From the IMG/VR virus record IMGVR_UViG_3300048836_000838, positions 1 to 60,508 of that record: 60,508 nucleotides of DNA; one strand, given 5' to 3'. The DNA comes from a virus. Under the pieces are notes generated by a model. It did no database searches. It was not told where the DNA came from and saw only the letters and a list, made by a program, of their open reading frames with translations. Position numbers and translations under genes: made by a program. This document shows, piece by piece, positions 4,540-27,214 of the stretch (its first letter is position 1; every line of letters begins with the position of its first letter).

Positions 4540-4716
4540 TCAAAGCCGCTCCTTGGGCATCCCGTGCGACTTCCTCATATTTTCCAATCGTGTTCGGATA
4601 TCAGTAACCCGTGCTGGATCCGCCTGGAGGACAGCGCCTACGGAGATCCGGCGAGAATACTGCAACAAGAAAACCACATCCTCTACCAATTGCTTTTCAG
4701 TAGGTGTCAATGCCAA
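4540..4716 (-). CDS. Small helical protein, hypothetical
   Basis: A 58-residue helical protein if started at TTG 4716, where AGGAG sits 8 nt upstream and the overlap with the preceding gene is only 20 nt. An ATG at 4770 in the same frame would give 76 residues but overlap the preceding gene by 74 nt. The body (TEKQLVEDVVFLLQYSRR) is followed by a basic helix ending MPKERL and could bind nucleic acid or protein. Function unknown. Confidence 0.45.
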   Translation of the reverse strand: MALTPTEKQLVEDVVFLLQYSRRISVGAVLQADPARVTDIRTRLENMRKSHGMPKERL

Positions 4717-4987
4717 TGCCGCGCTCCTGTGCAATGCGGGTAAGGGCTCTAAGAGATAACGAACCGACATACTCTTTCTCCTTGAAGAAAAACACCTCAG
4801 GTGCGAACTTACTCATCACACCTACGAAGTGCTCGTATGACTCATATCGGTCGACGGGGACTTTCGGCTCCTTGAGACGGAACTCCTTGCCGTAATGCAC
4901 GAACGCCTGGTAGTGGTCGCCGTCCTGGATCCATCCTTTGAACCATCCTTCTTCGATATGCGTCAAGCTGATGAGAAACATAAGCAC
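4697..4987 (-). CDS. Hypothetical protein, 96 residues
   Basis: A short protein with aromatic-rich segments (HIEEGWFKGWIQDGDHYQAF) and a Tyr-Glu-Ser-Tyr-Glu-His stretch. No family recognised. An AAGGAGGTGCTT site makes the ATG at 4987 firm. It lies immediately downstream of the MuF/toxin gene (5032-7950), a place where MuF-toxin phages and prophages often carry a small antitoxin or immunity protein. That role is therefore a specific but untested possibility. Confidence 0.6.
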   Translation of the reverse strand: MLMFLISLTHIEEGWFKGWIQDGDHYQAFVHYGKEFRLKEPKVPVDRYESYEHFVGVMSKFAPEVFFFKEKEYVGSLSLRALTRIAQERGIGIDTY

Positions 4988-5031: not shown

Positions 5032-7950
5032 TCAGATATCTGCTGCTTTCTTCTTTGCAAGAGCTTCGGCAGCTTTCTTGGCTGCGGCATCCTGGATTGC
5101 TTTCTTTGCTGCCTTGCGAGCTTCATCGAGATACTCGGAAGTCCCTTCTCCGCGCTCAAACGCATGGAAAGCATAGGGCACTTTCTTCTTGTCTAGCATG
5201 TCAGTGAGCTCTTTTAGTTCCTTGGCACGGTGCACATCAGCTTTCCATTGCTTCGGGATCATTACGACCTTAACGTCATCAAGCGTTAGCCCGCCTATGA
5301 ACTGTGCTTCGGTGTACGTCTCCAAGCCAGCAATTCCTTTGCCGTTCTTGATATACCTCGTAACTATCTTAATCTTCTCTGCAACTGAGCTTGCCTCATA
5401 CTGCGCGTTTTCGTAAACTGCATCGAGCAATGATATCGGATTCCGCGCTGTTGAGATGGGGCGCCGCGTTCCTGGACGGTAATAGTACCCGGAACTGTTG
5501 CCTACCGTAAATGTTGTACGATCAATCAACCGCTTCTTATCGAGCACAAAAGAGAGCTGCCCATACTGCCCTGTGCCTGGAAGGAAGGCCATGCCATCCT
5601 CTGCCTTCAAACCGTCATGCACATACCCGTAGAAAGGTCGCTCTCGCCCCAGCTCTGGCGTAAAGTATTCCTGGTTATTCATTCTCCTGTAATCAGCACT
5701 CTTCTGGAATGTACCGCCGTACATTTGCTTCTCCCAGGCGTCTCGTAAACTATCTTTGTACGGGCAAAGCGACCCATTGGATGTTGCTTTCCTGCCGAGC
5801 TCGAACTGGTTCTTGAACTTCCCTTCTTTAGCAAGGCTCTTCCACATCGCAGGGCTGCCATTTGTATTGAATGCCAGCTCGAACTTGTCCTCATCCAGCA
5901 GAGCAAGCTTCAGCTCTTCATACTGCTTCTCAAGCACCTCACGAGGTACACTGTAGCGCTCGGACATCAGATCCAGGATCTCGTTTTCTGCGTTCTTGGC
6001 TTTGGCTTCTGCGAAATCGATCGCCTCTTTCTGGAGCTCTGTTAGCTCGATGCCTGCTTTGGTCTTGATAACAACACCAGGCTTCGGAGGCGGAGGAGCA
6101 ACGAAAGGCTTCAGAGGCTCAACAGCATCGCCGGCCTTGGTCATTATGCGAGCCATGCCCGCTGCTTCCTCAACGTCATCCCAGAACTTGGCAACACCTT
6201 TTACGAAATCGGAACCATCATCCGTCATCTTGAGAACAACCACCTCTCGGCCGTGAAGTGTGGTGATGCCTGTTACATCGAACTTCGCACCAGGAAGCAC
6301 AAGCAACCGCTCCATATCAGCAGGGGCGACGTGCATGCCTGCTGGCACTTCTATCTTGAATAAGTGTTTTCCGTAGCTAGCCGCCTTCTCCATGCTGGCC
6401 GATCCAAGGCCGCGTGCTGCAAGCTCTGTGCCGCGGAACTCTGCCTTCATGCCTTCATCAAGAAACTCGAAACCCTTTTCATCAGTTGCCCAAAAACCGA
6501 ATCGAGCCTTAGTGGTCTTGAAATCATCCGATGCAGCAACACGGTAAATAGACTGGACATGCTCTTCTCTAAGCATCCCTTTAATGGTCTCACCTCCACT
6601 CTCCGCCCTTCTCAAGAAGTACTTACGAGCATCTGGGTCTCGTAAATCACCCCAAGGAGCGGCGATCGAAGAAGGGAACCGATCAGGATCTTCATACGCA
6701 AGTGAATCCCAGGGATCCCCTGCCGGTTTCTTCGGCGGTGTTACGGTTAGTGGCGGTGTTGTAGGAGTCTTTGCTCCAGGAACAGTTTTGATTGTCGCAG
6801 CGCCCGGGACAGGCGGCGAAGATCCCTGGATCCTCAGCTCTTCCAGAGTGTAAAGGCGGCCTGTCTTGTAATCGATAAGATCATCCACCTTGAGCAGGCC
6901 TGCTTTCATCATTTCGTGCCGCCCTTTCCCTAGCATGGAGAGCTGGACCTCTTCAGGCAGCGAAGTAAACCCTGCTCGAAGACCGCCCGGCAACACGGTG
7001 AACGGTTTGCCTGGTGCTGCTCCTCCTGTGCCGACCTGTGGGATATACCACTTCCCATCTTTCATCCTGCCGCGCAAGATAACAGGATCGATCTTCTTCT
7101 CGACCTTCTTGAGATCAACACCGATCTTCTTCAGGGACTTGGTCTTGGGGATGAAGAGGCATCGGCATCGCGGATGACGCGGCATCGGCGGATGGGCCTC
7201 TCCTTTGTAGAACGTTTTCCCACCAAGCGGCAGGCACATCAAGCACACACGATCGTCGTTTGCACTGATCCACGTCTTGCCAACCAGTATGTCTGCGTTC
7301 TCCTTATACACACGATCGAAAGCACGGGCATTAGCTGTCTGGAAAAAGGTTCGAGTCATCGTCGTTAGCTCATTCCGCATCAGTTCTGGAAACCGTTGCC
7401 GAAGCCCCTTTACCATTCGGTCATATGATGCTCCTGTCAGTGCGCCGATGCGCATCTCCTGGAGAAGCGCGTTCTGCATATCAGCCAGACCTGCACGGTC
7501 AAGCATAGACGTTACGACCTTGGGAATCATGATCGGCAACGACTCGGTGAAGAACGAAGCAAACTGGGAAGGCGACAATGCAATTGCACTGGTCTTGATT
7601 GCGCCGCCTACAGAAAGGATGTCGTTGTACTCCTTCACGGCAGCGGAGCCTACTGTTCCAGATGCGGCTGTCACACTGCCCGTAATATCGGCGTTGAGCG
7701 CCGCTGTCAGGCGTTCCATCTCCCTTTCCACCTGCCCGGCTCGGGCCGCTTGCCAGCTTCCTTCCTTGCCGCGCTTGGAAAGCTCCTCGACCTTGGCGTG
7801 CATCCGCTTGCCTGCTTCCTCAACAACAGGCAGGAAGCTCTTGATTGCAGCTTCCTCATACGCGCTCAACTGGTAAGTCCAGTATGTGCCGCGAATCGCT
7901 CGATATAGATCAACCTTCTCCTCAAGAGAAAGCATCATGTCAGCTGCCAT
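5032..7950 (-). CDS. MuF head-morphogenesis protein with C-terminal ADP-ribosyltransferase-like and DUF3626-like domains
   Basis: A 972-residue protein. Residues 1-270 are an SPP1 gp7/Mu F-type minor head protein, with the diagnostic Cys236, Cys239, His259, Cys262 and Cys264 near a Pro-Pro-x-Pro-Arg-His-Pro segment. A Pro/Thr-rich linker (about 375-410) follows. Residues about 440-580 resemble R-S-E ADP-ribosyltransferases: Tyr-Arg470, Ser-Ala-Ser 517-519 and Glu547 before Leu-Leu-Val-Leu-Pro-Gly. Residues about 640-935 resemble DUF3626: Arg-Pro-Phe-Tyr-Gly near 771, Tyr-Gly-Gln-Leu 796-799, Arg-Thr-Thr-Phe-Thr 811-815 and Glu-Ala-Gln 881-883. MuF proteins sit at the portal and can be injected. 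The start ATG 7950 follows AGGAG, and an earlier frame extension lacks one. Assignment of the two C-terminal domains is from motifs only. Confidence 0.75.
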   Translation of the reverse strand: MAADMMLSLEEKVDLYRAIRGTYWTYQLSAYEEAAIKSFLPVVEEAGKRMHAKVEELSKRGKEGSWQAARAGQVEREMERLTAALNADITGSVTAASGTVGSAAVKEYNDILSVGGAIKTSAIALSPSQFASFFTESLPIMIPKVVTSMLDRAGLADMQNALLQEMRIGALTGASYDRMVKGLRQRFPELMRNELTTMTRTFFQTANARAFDRVYKENADILVGKTWISANDDRVCLMCLPLGGKTFYKGEAHPPMPRHPRCRCLFIPKTKSLKKIGVDLKKVEKKIDPVILRGRMKDGKWYIPQVGTGGAAPGKPFTVLPGGLRAGFTSLPEEVQLSMLGKGRHEMMKAGLLKVDDLIDYKTGRLYTLEELRIQGSSPPVPGAATIKTVPGAKTPTTPPLTVTPPKKPAGDPWDSLAYEDPDRFPSSIAAPWGDLRDPDARKYFLRRAESGGETIKGMLREEHVQSIYRVAASDDFKTTKARFGFWATDEKGFEFLDEGMKAEFRGTELAARGLGSASMEKAASYGKHLFKIEVPAGMHVAPADMERLLVLPGAKFDVTGITTLHGREVVVLKMTDDGSDFVKGVAKFWDDVEEAAGMARIMTKAGDAVEPLKPFVAPPPPKPGVVIKTKAGIELTELQKEAIDFAEAKAKNAENEILDLMSERYSVPREVLEKQYEELKLALLDEDKFELAFNTNGSPAMWKSLAKEGKFKNQFELGRKATSNGSLCPYKDSLRDAWEKQMYGGTFQKSADYRRMNNQEYFTPELGRERPFYGYVHDGLKAEDGMAFLPGTGQYGQLSFVLDKKRLIDRTTFTVGNSSGYYYRPGTRRPISTARNPISLLDAVYENAQYEASSVAEKIKIVTRYIKNGKGIAGLETYTEAQFIGGLTLDDVKVVMIPKQWKADVHRAKELKELTDMLDKKKVPYAFHAFERGEGTSEYLDEARKAAKKAIQDAAAKKAAEALAKKKAADI

Positions 7951-7958
7951 CGGAACTC

Positions 7959-8168
7959 CTAGTGGTGCTCGATTGTGGTCATTGCATCCGTGCCTACACC
8001 ATGGACGGGGCACTCTTCATGCCAGGTGAAGATCGGCTTATCGCCATTCAAAAGAGCACCGTTGCACATTCCGAACCCATAACAGTTGATTTCGACAGGA
8101 CAAGTACACCCTTGTTCCACTGCTTCAGGACTGCCAGGGTTCGGAATGGCTATACGGTTCGAGCTCAT
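7959..8168 (-). CDS. Small Cys-rich portal-adjacent protein
   Basis: A 69-residue protein with six Cys and late His residues: GCTCPVEINC, MCNG and ECPVHG. The Gly-Cys-Thr-Cys-Pro start and Cys-Pro-x-His-Gly end recur in small proteins encoded next to phage portal genes and suggest a structural zinc site. GGAG lies upstream of ATG 8168. The gene lies between portal and MuF with gaps of 2 and 8 nt. Its role is unknown. It may assist head assembly. Confidence 0.6.
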   Translation of the reverse strand: MSSNRIAIPNPGSPEAVEQGCTCPVEINCYGFGMCNGALLNGDKPIFTWHEECPVHGVGTDAMTTIEHH

Positions 8169-8170
8169 CT

Positions 8171-9784
8171 TTACTGCTCCGCTCCTGTTCCTGCACCGAA
8201 CAGTGCATCGAAGCCGGACACAGGGCTCGCTTGGCTGGATACGTTCTCTTTGGACATCATCGCCAGCACATCTTCCCACTGCACATCAGCGGGGATGAGG
8301 CCTTTCTTCTGCGCCTCGCGGAACAAAAGCTCCTTAGGGAGGTTGCCTGCTTGGACCTGGGTAGCGATGAAGCCTTCTCCACGCTCGTCCATTGCGGCTT
8401 CGAGCTTGAGCAGTTCTTCTTCATCCTTCTCGTTGAAGCTAGGACCGAGGATGCCACGACGATACATTTCCTTCCACATAGTCGAGCGCGAGATGTCCTT
8501 GCCCTTGCGGAGTTCAAGGATCGCCTGGTACTCAGCGGCAGAAGCAGACAGGCCATGAGAAGTATTGACCGAAACGTTTGGTGCATCTAGCAGGCCTGGG
8601 GACTTCCAAAGCGTCGTGTAAACAACTGCAAGCTCAAGCGCGTCCTTCAACCCCATCGCCCAGGACTGGAGTGCGCTGGATGCTGTTGCTGTGTCCAGTG
8701 CAGCTCTGGTGGCGGACTCATCACCTGTCGACTGCTTCAGGAGCGGCTCATACGACAACAATGCGATCTGCCCTTCCAGCGCCTTCAACGAATCAGCACC
8801 AGATGCAATCGCCGCCCCAGTATGCTCAACGAACCGAAGATCGCCATGCTCATCCTGGGAGTGGATCATGGCACTTGCTCCCTGCTCAATCTTGCTGGTG
8901 CCTTCCAGGAACAACCGCTTGCCAAACAGAAGAGGGAATCGACTGTAATCGAGAATATGGTCCTGGGAGCTGGTGCTCTGGTAGTGGCGGACGCAAAGGC
9001 GCGCCATGTCGTGGAGCGGCGGAGATGCTCGAAGCGGCCCCTTGCGCTTGGTGTATACAGGGATCAATGGGATGATTGGGATCGACATCTTGAATATCTG
9101 TTCGGATTCGACTGCCCCTGCTTCGGAGCACTGGAACTCATGGCAGCTACCAAGACGGTACACACGCAGAATCTTCTTCTTCTCAAACACGAACAGCGAC
9201 GTCTCGACATCGCGGTACTGAAGAGTGCGCAATTCCACCAGAACGTTGACGCCGTTGATTCGTTCAAACTTCCAGCCGATCACTTCTGCTGCTTTCAGGA
9301 AGATCCAGTAAGGGCGACGAGTGCGCTTCTCCTTCAGCTCTGCTTCCTGGTTAGGGGCTGTGGGGAGGGACGGGAAATCGACCATGATATACGAAATGCC
9401 CTCAGCAATGGCCGCGGAGAAGACCTCCTGCGCGAATACATGGAGGTTGTTGCCTTCCATATCCACATCATCTTCGAATGCAGCCCAATCGTCGCTTGCG
9501 TCTTCGAACTTCACTTCTTTCGAGAACACACGCCCTGACAACGAGTCAACGGTGCGGCTGAACTGATTGAAGAAGGTTGCTGTGTCCAGGCGCTTCTGAT
9601 AGGCCGTGTCGTTCTCAAGCTCTTTCTGCGGAAGGTAGGTCGTGCGGGCAGCACGCAGAGCAGTGATGCCTTCCATCAAATCGCGACAAACGCCGCGCTC
9701 CCTTTCATCAACTGTCCATGCCGGGCACGGGGTTTGGGCAAGGATCGCTTGCTCTTTGGTAATGGTCGTCTGTTCCGTTGCCAT
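8171..9784 (-). CDS. Portal protein (DUF4055-type)
   Basis: The 537-residue protein carries the features of DUF4055 portal proteins: an early Arg-Thr-Tyr-Leu-Pro-Gln (about 47), the AYQKRLDTATFFNQFSRTV helix (about 61-79), Leu-Ser-Gly-Arg-Val-Phe and the beta-strand block ISYIMVDFPSLP near 130. Portals form the dodecameric vertex through which DNA enters and leaves. It lies just downstream of terL and upstream of MuF, the canonical order. The C-terminal 60 residues include Gln-rich, likely flexible sequence. GGAGGATTACGATC places the start firmly at 9784. Confidence 0.85.
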   Translation of the reverse strand: MATEQTTITKEQAILAQTPCPAWTVDERERGVCRDLMEGITALRAARTTYLPQKELENDTAYQKRLDTATFFNQFSRTVDSLSGRVFSKEVKFEDASDDWAAFEDDVDMEGNNLHVFAQEVFSAAIAEGISYIMVDFPSLPTAPNQEAELKEKRTRRPYWIFLKAAEVIGWKFERINGVNVLVELRTLQYRDVETSLFVFEKKKILRVYRLGSCHEFQCSEAGAVESEQIFKMSIPIIPLIPVYTKRKGPLRASPPLHDMARLCVRHYQSTSSQDHILDYSRFPLLFGKRLFLEGTSKIEQGASAMIHSQDEHGDLRFVEHTGAAIASGADSLKALEGQIALLSYEPLLKQSTGDESATRAALDTATASSALQSWAMGLKDALELAVVYTTLWKSPGLLDAPNVSVNTSHGLSASAAEYQAILELRKGKDISRSTMWKEMYRRGILGPSFNEKDEEELLKLEAAMDERGEGFIATQVQAGNLPKELLFREAQKKGLIPADVQWEDVLAMMSKENVSSQASPVSGFDALFGAGTGAEQ

Positions 9785-9797
9785 GATCGTAATCCTC

Positions 9798-11312
9798 CTA
9801 GACTAGCGGGAAGGAGAAAACCTGCCCGCCTGTGTTCTTTCGTAGCTTGTTGTATGCGCCGGCGATGGCGTCGACCTGGTCTTTGAACTTGCCAAATGGG
9901 AACATTCGAAGCTCGTCTGTGAATGCTTTATTCCACGGCCCAGCAATCATCTCAACGTTCCCTGCGTTCACCTGCACCGAGAACGGATCGGCGCGGGTTA
10001 CTTTGTCACCAGTAGGATGATCTGCAAGCGCGATGAAACCATCAAGACCGCGTATAGAGATCTGGACTGAGTCCTTACCTGCTGAGCCCCCTTCTTGCTC
10101 CATGTAGATGTGAACAGCTTCTCCATCATGCCGTGCCGTCTGCACAATCCGCGCCTCTCGAATATCTGATGCCCACTGCCCCCTCTCAACATGGAAGATG
10201 CAGTACTTGCCGTTTGCGAGTTTTGCCATCTTCGCGCCTACCGTAAAGCAGCCGGCGTCTTGGGTGGCGGCTTTATCCCAGTAACGGATCGTTCTGCCTA
10301 CAACAGGCGCTGACGGCTCCGAAACCACCATGATATTATCAGGCTGGAACATGCCACCAGCAGGAGGGGTTGGGTTCTGGCCGATCTGCCCTGCGTAACC
10401 ATACTGGCCAAGGTCAGCTTCGAGCTCTTGTAGAACAGGCCAGGGCATTCGGTTTGCATCGAGCAAATCATCTTGATAGTGTGTAATCAGACCGGGCGGC
10501 TTGATCAGATCCTTGTACGCACGAGCTTCGCCTGGCAGGCAGATATGAAAAACGTTATCTTTCTGCTTGGCGAGGAGATGGCCCGTCGGATCATCTTGGT
10601 GCAATCGCTGCATAATCAGAACTGTTGAAGTGACTTGTTTGTCGACCTTACGAGTAGACAGCGTATGATCGAGCCAGCGGTTTGCAGATTTAATCTCAAC
10701 TTCGCTCACTGCACGATTCGGATCAAGCGGATCGTCGACCAGTAGGATGTGGCCATGGAAACCTGTTAGTGTGCCGCCGACCGATGTCGAGATTCTGTTT
10801 CCGCCTTGCCGGATTGCTACGAAGTTCCCTTCATCGTCGTACTCGTCGTACTGGATGCGGAAGTTGGACTTGGTATCCTTGTCCATCTTGATCTGGAGAT
10901 GTGGGAACAGATCACGAAATTTCTTAGAGCGGATGATGTCTCGGGAGTATTCACCGAGTTCGAGTGACAAGGCGGCTGCATATGATATGGTAATGAACTT
11001 CAGGTGCGGCCAGTTGGTCCACGCCCATGCTGGAAACATAACTGAGCAGGTAATCGATTTGGTTGTGCCCGGAGGAATGTTGACGATCATATCATGCTCT
11101 TTCGGCAGCCCGTTCCCTGCGCGGTGAGCGATGCGCATCAACTGCGAACACAGATAAGGGATGTGCCAGTTCCACGAAGGCACGTCTCCGCTCACCTCGC
11201 TCCAGAACGTTTTCATGAAGTAGAACAAGGATCGCCGGCACAGCTCCGCCTCAACGTTAAGTGGACGAGAGAATGCTTTGCGAACCAGATCGGCCTTATT
11301 GCGAATCGGCAT
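9798..11312 (-). CDS. terL: Terminase large subunit (packaging ATPase-nuclease)
   Basis: A 504-residue packaging motor. The ATPase domain has a Walker A-like Pro-Pro-Gly-Thr-Thr-Lys-Ser (about 75-82), a Walker B Ile-Leu-Leu-Val-Asp-Asp (about 190) and a following Thr-Val-Leu-Ile-Met-Gln-Arg (motif III region). The C-terminal RNase H-like nuclease begins at Arg-Tyr-Trp-Asp-Lys-Ala (about 330), whose Asp is the first metal ligand. It overlaps terS by 17 nt, indicating translational coupling. It cuts concatemeric DNA and drives it into the prohead. Length and order are typical. Confidence 0.93.
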   Translation of the reverse strand: MPIRNKADLVRKAFSRPLNVEAELCRRSLFYFMKTFWSEVSGDVPSWNWHIPYLCSQLMRIAHRAGNGLPKEHDMIVNIPPGTTKSITCSVMFPAWAWTNWPHLKFITISYAAALSLELGEYSRDIIRSKKFRDLFPHLQIKMDKDTKSNFRIQYDEYDDEGNFVAIRQGGNRISTSVGGTLTGFHGHILLVDDPLDPNRAVSEVEIKSANRWLDHTLSTRKVDKQVTSTVLIMQRLHQDDPTGHLLAKQKDNVFHICLPGEARAYKDLIKPPGLITHYQDDLLDANRMPWPVLQELEADLGQYGYAGQIGQNPTPPAGGMFQPDNIMVVSEPSAPVVGRTIRYWDKAATQDAGCFTVGAKMAKLANGKYCIFHVERGQWASDIREARIVQTARHDGEAVHIYMEQEGGSAGKDSVQISIRGLDGFIALADHPTGDKVTRADPFSVQVNAGNVEMIAGPWNKAFTDELRMFPFGKFKDQVDAIAGAYNKLRKNTGGQVFSFPLV

Positions 11313-22353: not shown

Positions 22354-23007
22354 ATGCTAAATGTGCATGAGATCTTCCGGTCAATCAGCGGAGAAGTCGG
22401 CGAGATCCCACAAGGGTCTATCGCGTGGTTCATCAGATTCCAGGGATGTAATCTCCGGTGCAGCTGGTGTGACACAGAACGGGCGCAGGAAATCAATATG
22501 CCCGGACATGAAATGGGGCTGACAACTGCGGGCATTGTTGCAAACAGCATCCCCGCAAACAGCAACGTGATCCTGACAGGTGGGGAGCCATACTGCCAGC
22601 CAGTTGACGAGTTGCGAGACCTCATCAAATTCCTTCACGCCAAGAACTGCCGTGTCCAGATTGAGACGAACGGTTCGTATCCTCCTGTTCTTGATGTAGA
22701 CCATGTTATGGATTACAAAACACCTTCTTCTGGTATGACGGCGCTCATGATGGACGCCACGGTGTTTGAATCCCTCCCGCCAGGCAGCTGGGTGAAGATG
22801 GTTGTCAAAACACTGGCTGATATCGAGGCCGCAACTCGTGTAGCAAGTCACCTTGTCCGAGAAGGGGCGCAGGCGCGAATCGCCTTTTCCGCTGAAAGCG
22901 GTGAGATGATATCTGAGGTGATCGATTTCATCAACGGCGTAGCTCCTGAGCTCCTGCCGCACATCGTTTTCAACGTCCAGCTACACAAAAAGCTGGATCT
23001 TGCTTAA
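22354..23007 (+). CDS. queE: QueE, 7-carboxy-7-deazaguanine synthase
   Basis: A 217-residue radical SAM enzyme with the cluster motif Cys32-x3-Cys36-x2-Cys39 (GCNLRCSWCD), a Gly-Gly-Glu-Pro at about 75 that binds SAM, and Ile-Glu-Thr-Asn-Gly near 110. It rearranges carboxytetrahydropterin to 7-carboxy-7-deazaguanine. It starts one base after the queD stop, so the two are translated together. Length and motif order match bacterial QueE. Confidence 0.93.
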   Translation: MLNVHEIFRSISGEVGEIPQGSIAWFIRFQGCNLRCSWCDTERAQEINMPGHEMGLTTAGIVANSIPANSNVILTGGEPYCQPVDELRDLIKFLHAKNCRVQIETNGSYPPVLDVDHVMDYKTPSSGMTALMMDATVFESLPPGSWVKMVVKTLADIEAATRVASHLVREGAQARIAFSAESGEMISEVIDFINGVAPELLPHIVFNVQLHKKLDLA

Positions 23008-26161: not shown

Positions 26162-27214
26162 ATGAAAGAGATTAAACTGTATTTCGCCGGCGCCTGGTGT
26201 GGGTCTTGCTCGATTGAAGAAGCAGACCTGGGCATCACCAACAAGCTGGTGTCCTTCATCTACCCAGATCAACTACGATCCTGGTTTGAGGTTTCGGAAG
26301 GGCGGGAAGGTAACATCATCGTTGACTCCGGGGCGTTTTCCGCCTGGAACAAAGGGAAACCTGTCGACCTCGATGCTTACATCAACTACGCCCTCACCGC
26401 AATCGAGAAAGGGAAGTCCCAAGGCAAGCGAGTACACATCGTTAATCTCGACGTGATACCAGGGAAGGCCGGTCAAACGGCCTCCCTGAATCGGCCTAAG
26501 GACTCCCAGGACTTCGTTCGGGTGAAGGCAATCAAAGACGAGGCAGCCCGGCAAGGGTACCATAATCTGAAACGCATGAAAGAAGCCGGCATCACTCCCA
26601 TCCACGTCTTCCATCAAGGTGAAGACTACAAGTGGATTGAAAGGATGGTGAAACTCACGCCGTACATTGGCATCTCACCGGCGAACGACATGTCCGTAAA
26701 GGAAAAGGCGGCGTGGATTGGTGACGTCTTCAGATACTTATGGGAGAAAGGCATCGAAGTTGATACGCACGGCTTCGCAGTCTGGATGCCATCAGTAATG
26801 AAAGCGTACCCGTGGACATCTTGTGATGCCGCCACCTGGAGGCTTCTGGCTGCCTGGGGATGTATCATGTGGCCTCCGGGCGGTCTTGTGCCTGAGGCAA
26901 TGTGGTTGAAGCCTGCAACCATTTCGGTGTCAATGCAGCAGAAGAAGCCCAAGAAAGGTGAGAAACCTAAATCCGGTTTCTTCACATCGGACGAACTTCA
27001 GATGCCTTGCGCAGGCACTGTGCACCTTTCCCCTGCAATCATGCAACAGATCGAGGCTGCTGGCTTCACTTTCGAAGACCTCCAAACCTGGGAAGGCCGT
27101 GCTCGCATTAACGTGAAATATTTCCTCGGCCTTGAAAAGCATCTCAACGAGTATAAACGTGTGACAGAGTTTAACCCTGCAACCCTCACACTAAAGGATA
27201 CGGAGCTCCAATGA
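26162..27214 (+). CDS. dpdA: DpdA-like 7-deazaguanine DNA transglycosylase
   Basis: A 350-residue protein of the tRNA-guanine transglycosylase fold, matching phage DpdA. It has Val-Asp-Ser-Gly-Ala-Phe-Ser (54-60, first Asp), Val-Asn-Leu-Asp (94-97), His-Gln-Gly-Glu (151-154), Gly-Ile-Ser-Pro-Ala (170-174) and His-Gly-Phe-Ala with Trp-Thr-Ser-Cys-Asp-Ala (218-223), where Asp222 corresponds to the TGT nucleophile. DpdA swaps guanine in DNA for a deazaguanine base. The nearby FolE-QueD-QueE-QueC-QueF set supplies preQ0 and preQ1. No other DpdA, glycosylase or Gat-QueC gene is seen. Substrate preference for preQ1 is inference. Confidence 0.88.
   Translation: MKEIKLYFAGAWCGSCSIEEADLGITNKLVSFIYPDQLRSWFEVSEGREGNIIVDSGAFSAWNKGKPVDLDAYINYALTAIEKGKSQGKRVHIVNLDVIPGKAGQTASLNRPKDSQDFVRVKAIKDEAARQGYHNLKRMKEAGITPIHVFHQGEDYKWIERMVKLTPYIGISPANDMSVKEKAAWIGDVFRYLWEKGIEVDTHGFAVWMPSVMKAYPWTSCDAATWRLLAAWGCIMWPPGGLVPEAMWLKPATISVSMQQKKPKKGEKPKSGFFTSDELQMPCAGTVHLSPAIMQQIEAAGFTFEDLQTWEGRARINVKYFLGLEKHLNEYKRVTEFNPATLTLKDTELQ

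What the first reader, a model, noticed from the sequence alone, without database searches (positions are those of the whole stretch)
5032..7950. MuF protein carrying two toxin-like C-terminal domains
The N-terminal head-morphogenesis domain is clear. Behind it lie Arg470, Ser-Ala-Ser 517-519 and Glu547 in ADP-ribosyltransferase order, and a region resembling DUF3626 with Glu-Ala-Gln 881-883. MuF-linked polymorphic toxins are known mostly from temperate phages, so this would be an injected effector in an apparently lytic phage. The small gene at 4697-4987 could be its immunity partner.
Basis: partly seen in the sequence, partly recalled or inferred. Interest (0 to 1): 0.8.

Follow-up and report, generated by a model that had tools for sequence, protein, structure and literature searches.

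The report
Phage head protein carrying SopF-type ADP-ribosyltransferase
A protein that this phage probably packs inside its head and injects with its DNA ends in an enzyme domain of the same family as the Salmonella effector SopF, which attaches ADP-ribose to proteins, and the small gene behind it looks like a dedicated partner, perhaps an antidote.

Summary
The gene is real, on the minus strand (5032-7950, 972 aa), in a complete genome with no integrase found. Order: portal-interacting MuF head domain, ART-like domain (about 460-580), DUF3626 domain (about 640-930).

DUF3626 is the firm part. Pfam E 1e-12. Family profiles match only SopF in the PDB (E 2e-11 and 7e-12), and Foldseek of a modest model (pLDDT 57) agrees (E 7e-7). 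SopF is a proven ADP-ribosyltransferase. Y774, E881 and Q883 are invariant in 17 divergent phage sequences.

The first domain is probably ART-fold: it outscores 2,000 shuffles and every non-ART decoy. But alignments do not put Ser517-Ala-Ser519 or Glu547 at the catalytic positions, so its activity is doubtful.

The architecture recurs: 16 of 64 viral DUF3626 proteins carry Phage_Mu_F, and at least two carry MuF + classical ART + DUF3626. The related phage AXL1, which lacks lysogeny genes, has a MuF-ART protein found in virions. So "injected ART in a lytic phage" is precedented.

The small gene gains support: its only viral relatives found lie directly behind another MuF-DUF3626 gene, in a phage sharing little else detectable. 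SopF-type ARTs as phage head effectors appear undescribed. Nothing biochemical was tested.

The parts
5032..7950 (-). MuF head protein with two C-terminal domains, 972 aa (P0001); alternative GTG start at 8013
7120..7482 (-). MuF/SPP1 gp7-like head-morphogenesis domain, residues 157-277
   Evidence: PHROG 241 E 7e-22; TIGR01641 39.6 bits (cut-off 39.65); Phage_Mu_F 22.5 bits (below cut-off 29.6)
6211..6573 (-). ART-fold-like domain, residues about 460-580 (R470 on first strand; catalytic Ser/Glu positions uncertain)
   Evidence: phage-ART profile 12.7 bits against maximum 11.8 in 2000 shuffles and 4.8 in non-ART decoys; model made with an ART alignment resembles Vis and C3larvin; no Pfam/PHROG/PDB sequence hit
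5161..6033 (-). DUF3626 / SopF-type ADP-ribosyltransferase domain, residues about 640-930
   Evidence: PF12294 E 1e-12; profile against PDB 7DN8/7DN9 E 2e-11 and 7e-12; Foldseek 7dn8_A E 7e-7
5302..5310 (-). Glu881-Ala-Gln883; E and Q invariant in 17 of 17 divergent phage homologues
5629..5631 (-). Tyr774, invariant; proposed counterpart of the Tyr of the I-Y-E triad reported for SopF (inference)
4697..4987 (-). small partner gene (96 aa, P0002), candidate immunity protein
   Evidence: homologous to the ORF directly behind the MuF-DUF3626 gene in L115/L114 (E 6e-7 among 8121 ORFs)
8171..9784 (-). portal protein; closest deposited relatives are Mesyanzhinovviridae-type phages (AXL1, Mallos, AAT-1)
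   Evidence: PHROG 145 E 2e-97
9798..11312 (-). terminase large subunit
   Evidence: PHROG 38 E 9e-79

Best explanation
The gene encodes a minor head protein whose N-terminal MuF domain takes it into the procapsid beside the portal and whose C-terminal domains are effectors delivered with the DNA. The last domain is a SopF-type (DUF3626) ADP-ribosyltransferase that would use NAD+ to modify an unknown host target early in infection. The domain in front of it is a second ART-fold domain, possibly without canonical catalytic residues, that may act as a divergent enzyme or a substrate-binding or spacer module. The 96-aa gene directly behind it is a partner of the DUF3626 domain, most likely an inhibitor that keeps the newly made enzyme harmless in the producing cell. 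Shown here: the domains, their homology to SopF, invariance of the key residues, recurrence of the architecture, and co-occurrence of the small gene with DUF3626. Inferred: packaging, ejection, catalysis, target and inhibition.
For: Domains. SopF homology by profile; by model. SopF carries DUF3626 (PMC6682159) and is an ADP-ribosyltransferase with an I-Y-E triad, PDB 7DN8/7DN9 (PMC10333799). Invariant Y774, E881, Q883. Of 64 viral DUF3626 proteins, 16 match Phage_Mu_F, 2 Phage_min_cap2, one or two are portal fusions, 4 match ADPrib_exo_Tox. MuF + ART + DUF3626 in L124 and L145. Virion location of a related MuF-ART protein, AXL1 gp16, 48 peptides (PMC9206674). SPP1 gp7 is carried into the procapsid by the portal (PMC6316719). 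Small gene.
Against: No biochemistry and no virion proteomics for this phage. The structural model has mean pLDDT 57. The His of the common EAQxHGG motif is Ile885 here. SopF needs a eukaryotic ARF GTPase for activity (PMC10333799), so a phage relative needs another activator or none. The small-gene link for this family rests on one other phage lineage (L114 and L115 are near-identical), and a fragment of the family occurs in a Desulfosudis genome away from any DUF3626 gene.
Confidence: 0.7

Rival explanations
1. The C-terminal domains are packaged but no longer enzymes: divergent ART-fold modules kept for head or DNA-ejection roles.
For: The first domain lacks the catalytic Glu and Ser in register in three alignments; H to I885 in the DUF3626 motif; SPP1 gp7 is dispensable for assembly but supports infection without any toxin domain (PMC6316719).
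Against: E881, Q883, Y774 and R811 are invariant in DUF3626 across otherwise about 25%-identical sequences, as expected under selection for catalysis.
Confidence: 0.15
2. The first C-terminal domain is a fully active R-S-E ART, so the protein carries two working transferases.
For: Residues R470, S-A-S and E547 occur in order; phage-ART profile score above all shuffles; classical ART + DUF3626 co-occur in L124, L145 and L122.
Against: Aligned catalytic positions fall on M-K-A and R548 (or L549, with a gap), not on S-A-S and E547; no close relative exists to test conservation.
Confidence: 0.25
3. The small gene is an unrelated morphogenesis gene that happens to sit behind the MuF gene.
For: Small ORFs follow most long MuF genes (89.4% in Jamet 2017); AXL1-type phages have an unrelated 90-aa ORF there; orphan fragment in L175.
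Against: Homologue directly behind the DUF3626 gene of L115, which shares only DUF3626, the distant MuF fold and this gene with the window; absent from all MuF loci without DUF3626.
Confidence: 0.3

Closest known systems
MuF polymorphic toxins (Jamet 2017, PMC5576092; Bxa, PMC11699363)
   Same: MuF head domain, toxin-like C-terminal domain, small ORF directly behind; ART is a frequent toxin domain
   Different: Described as exclusive to temperate phages; here a genome with no integrase found and a DUF3626 domain, which is not named in that paper's text
AXL1 gp16 and relatives (Mallos, Elanor, AAT-1 minor head proteins)
   Same: Related portal, MuF plus two further domains (HELGH peptidase-like motif and C-terminal ART), phage without recognisable lysogeny genes, protein found in virions
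   Different: Classical VIP2-type ART, no DUF3626; the downstream small ORF is unrelated
SopF (Salmonella effector; PDB 7DN8/7DN9)
   Same: DUF3626 domain, homologous by profile and predicted fold
   Different: Secreted by a type III system into animal cells and activated by ARF GTPases; not a head protein. No ARF-like partner is implied here
Streptococcus phage MissE2 UJD18122
   Same: MuF N-terminus and a C-terminal DUF3626-like domain (Pfam E 0.003), directly after the portal, followed by a 103-aa ORF
   Different: No ART-like middle domain recognised; small ORF unrelated to P0002
T4 Alt and polyvalent proteins (Iyer 2017, PMC5512222)
   Same: Head-packaged ARTs injected with DNA; several effector domains on one chain
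   Different: Alt/VIP2 and HYD2 clades, not the SopF family

Membership tests
MuF polymorphic toxin | MuF/SPP1 gp7-like N-terminal domain behind the portal gene | tested here: met
   PHROG 241 E 7e-22; gene follows portal; Pfam score below cut-off
MuF polymorphic toxin | C-terminal toxin or effector domain that varies between related phages | tested here: met
   Related-phage MuF proteins are short, or carry ART, kinase-like, peptidase-motif or intein-containing extensions
MuF polymorphic toxin | Cognate small immunity gene behind the toxin | tested here: inconclusive
   P0002 co-occurs with DUF3626 in one other lineage; function untested
MuF polymorphic toxin | Encoded by a temperate phage | tested here: not met
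   Complete genome by 127-bp terminal repeat; no Phage_integrase or Resolvase; repressors not searched exhaustively. So I file it as a MuF effector protein, not as a typical member
DUF3626 / SopF-type ADP-ribosyltransferase | Profile match above cut-off | tested here: met
   PF12294 44.9-48.1 bits, cut-off 27; 7DN8 E 2e-11
DUF3626 / SopF-type ADP-ribosyltransferase | Conserved Tyr and Glu of the triad | tested here: met
   Y774 and E881 invariant in A4 and in 63 of 63 non-gapped A7 members; assignment to the SopF residues is inferred from spacing
DUF3626 / SopF-type ADP-ribosyltransferase | NAD+-dependent ADP-ribosylation | not testable with these tools
   needs an enzyme assay
R-S-E (VIP2/ADPrib_exo_Tox) ART, residues 460-580 | Pfam match | tested here: not met
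   no match up to E 10
R-S-E (VIP2/ADPrib_exo_Tox) ART, residues 460-580 | ART fold | tested here: inconclusive
   profile above controls; model pLDDT 58, built on an ART alignment, top hits Vis and C3larvin E 4e-4 to 1e-3
R-S-E (VIP2/ADPrib_exo_Tox) ART, residues 460-580 | Catalytic Arg, S-T-S and E-x-E in register | tested here: inconclusive
   R470 aligns in two of three alignments, S-A-S and E547 in none

The most novel reading that the evidence does not exclude
Phages use SopF-type ARTs widely as head-delivered (MuF- or portal-fused) effectors, each with a dedicated small partner gene from one of several unrelated families, forming a toxin-antidote-like system in phages that lack lysogeny; the SopF-type effectors of bacteria could derive from this phage pool.
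Probability: 0.4. Interest if true: 0.75.

Novelty: new variant of a known kind. Interest (0 to 1): 0.58.

Why it matters
It would add a further family of ADP-ribosyltransferases, with a solved structure and a known activity in one member, to the enzymes phages inject, and gives concrete residues (Y774, E881) and a partner gene to test. If the small gene is an antidote, it raises a question that can be tested directly: why a phage that only lyses would need to protect the cell in which it is assembled. It also offers a possible phage origin for a family known so far mainly from a pathogen effector.

Tried and rejected
No relatives of the whole protein in phages or IMG/VR by direct search. No relatives of residues 440-610 in phages, plasmids or IMG/VR; a first ART profile was contaminated by a KGDYVGHPFRGNQW linker and gave only weak support. 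An apparent 31-52% identity of P0002 to small ORFs of AXL1-type phages is an alignment artefact: few invariant columns and no phmmer hit. First single-linkage clustering of downstream ORFs was chained by shared linkers and redone on N-terminal stretches. P0002 is not detectably related to the two large partner families. No NADAR, ADP-ribosyl hydrolase or macro domain in the genome. Alignment-based scans failed for genome contigs with DUF3626 and for viral ARTs. A shadow-ORF match between L115 and the portal region, E 0.006, was judged chance.

Full report
Window and gene. The window is a whole IMG/VR record. An exact 127-bp direct repeat at its ends indicates a complete, circularly assembled genome. 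Head genes lie on the minus strand in the order terminase small, terminase large, portal, MuF gene, small ORFs, scaffold, major capsid. The plus strand carries replication genes, a QueE-like gene and a queuine tRNA-ribosyltransferase-like gene. No tyrosine or serine integrase was found; repressors were not searched exhaustively, so 'apparently lytic' is likely, not shown. The portal's closest deposited relatives are Mesyanzhinovviridae-type phages at about 35% identity.

Observation. The N-terminus matches head-morphogenesis families strongly in PHROGs and below cut-off in Pfam. DUF3626 is above cut-off. Residues 440-610 match no library by sequence.

The DUF3626 domain. A profile of the window domain with phage homologues retrieves SopF chains 7DN8 and 7DN9 from the PDB at E 2e-11 and 9e-10, nothing else below 0.05; a second profile with plasmid-borne members gives 7e-12. 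An AlphaFold2 model of residues 425-945 (mean pLDDT 57, better over DUF3626) has 7dn8_A as its only Foldseek match below 0.001, E 7e-7. Papers state that SopF contains DUF3626 (PMC6682159) and is an ADP-ribosyltransferase with an I-Y-E triad (PMC10333799). Y774, Y796, R811, T813, S819, Y879, E881, Q883 and G886 are invariant in 17 divergent sequences, and the Tyr, Glu and Gln in all 63 non-gapped members of a 64-protein set. Assigning Y774 and E881 to the SopF Tyr and Glu is my inference from spacing and motif.

The first C-terminal domain. A profile of phage ARTs gives 12.7 bits, above all 2,000 shuffles (best 11.8, next 7.0) and above all real decoys that are not ARTs or pieces of this protein (best 4.8). 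A model built with an ART alignment (pLDDT 58, so not independent evidence) resembles the ARTs Vis and C3larvin and ART-like regions of other toxins. I therefore think it is ART-fold. But in three alignments the S-T-S position falls on M-K-A and the catalytic Glu on R548; pairwise with AXL1, E547-R548 matches the E-R of E-R-E and the catalytic Glu is missing. Catalysis is open.

How common is it? Scans of IMG/VR gave 16 and then 73 loci with DUF3626-type proteins. Of 64 scanned, 16 match Phage_Mu_F, 2 Phage_min_cap2, one or two carry portal domains, 4 ADPrib_exo_Tox. L124 and L145 combine MuF, classical ART and DUF3626, and L162 fuses a Mu-type portal to DUF3626 (in L124 the MuF call rests on a model built here). 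L115 and L116 have an HExxH motif where the window has the ART-like domain. Streptococcus phage MissE2 has MuF plus a weak DUF3626 match. So the protein is one of a modular set. Only two open-access papers held mention DUF3626, neither about phages, and none linking SopF to phage proteins was found; subscription papers and preprints are not covered.

Lytic precedent. AXL1, Mallos, Elanor and AAT-1 minor head proteins carry MuF and ART, with an HELGH motif between. AXL1 lacks recognisable lysogeny genes, and its gp16 was found in virions with 48 peptides (PMC9206674).

The small gene. P0002 has no family match. It is homologous to the 89-aa ORF directly behind the MuF-HExxH-DUF3626 gene in L115 (E 6e-7 among 8,121 ORFs) and its near-twin L114. 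L115 has a different capsid type with a head protease; the matches to the window are DUF3626, the distant MuF fold and this gene. A dedicated IMG/VR scan found only these two, but that is one lineage, and an orphan fragment sits in a Desulfosudis genome. More broadly, the ORF directly behind viral DUF3626 genes often belongs to one of two further small-protein families, 21 and 17 adjacent cases, with none in the loci that lack DUF3626 (the three hits printed as 'non-DUF' are DUF3626 loci left out of that list, L120, L167 and L169). The families were seeded from these positions and some phages are related, so this shows association, not function. An antidote, a chaperone or a packaging adaptor would all fit; I favour an inhibitor.

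Conclusion. New variant of a known kind: a MuF-delivered effector whose catalytic module belongs to the SopF family.

Noticed in passing
L119, L122, L142, L145, L150, L151, L154, L162, L170, L173 and others, directly behind the DUF3626 gene: Two recurring small-protein families sit directly behind viral DUF3626 genes, often overlapping the stop codon, sometimes fused after DUF3626 or forming the N-terminus of the next large protein. They look like general partners of DUF3626.
   Followed up: partly
L162:1936-6570: A Mu-type portal protein fused to a C-terminal DUF3626 domain, with a SAP domain between.
   Followed up: no
L106, L107, L112, L113: AXL1-type phages encode a YbiA/NADAR-like gene on the opposite strand close behind their MuF-ART gene; it might reverse ADP-ribosylation. 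The window has no NADAR, macro or ADP-ribosyl hydrolase match.
   Followed up: partly
L033, L036, L060: MuF genes interrupted by intein-like segments, with DUF559-type nuclease matches in two of them.
   Followed up: no
L049:6265-7998: MuF protein with a C-terminal PI3/PI4-kinase or Fam20C-like match, another possible injected effector.
   Followed up: no
22354-23007 and 26162-27214: QueE-like and queuine tRNA-ribosyltransferase-like genes suggest 7-deazaguanine modification of the phage DNA.
   Followed up: no
L175:5962-6144: P0002-like fragment (49% over 43 aa) in a Desulfosudis genome assembly, without a DUF3626 gene next to it; possibly an orphan antidote remnant.
   Followed up: partly
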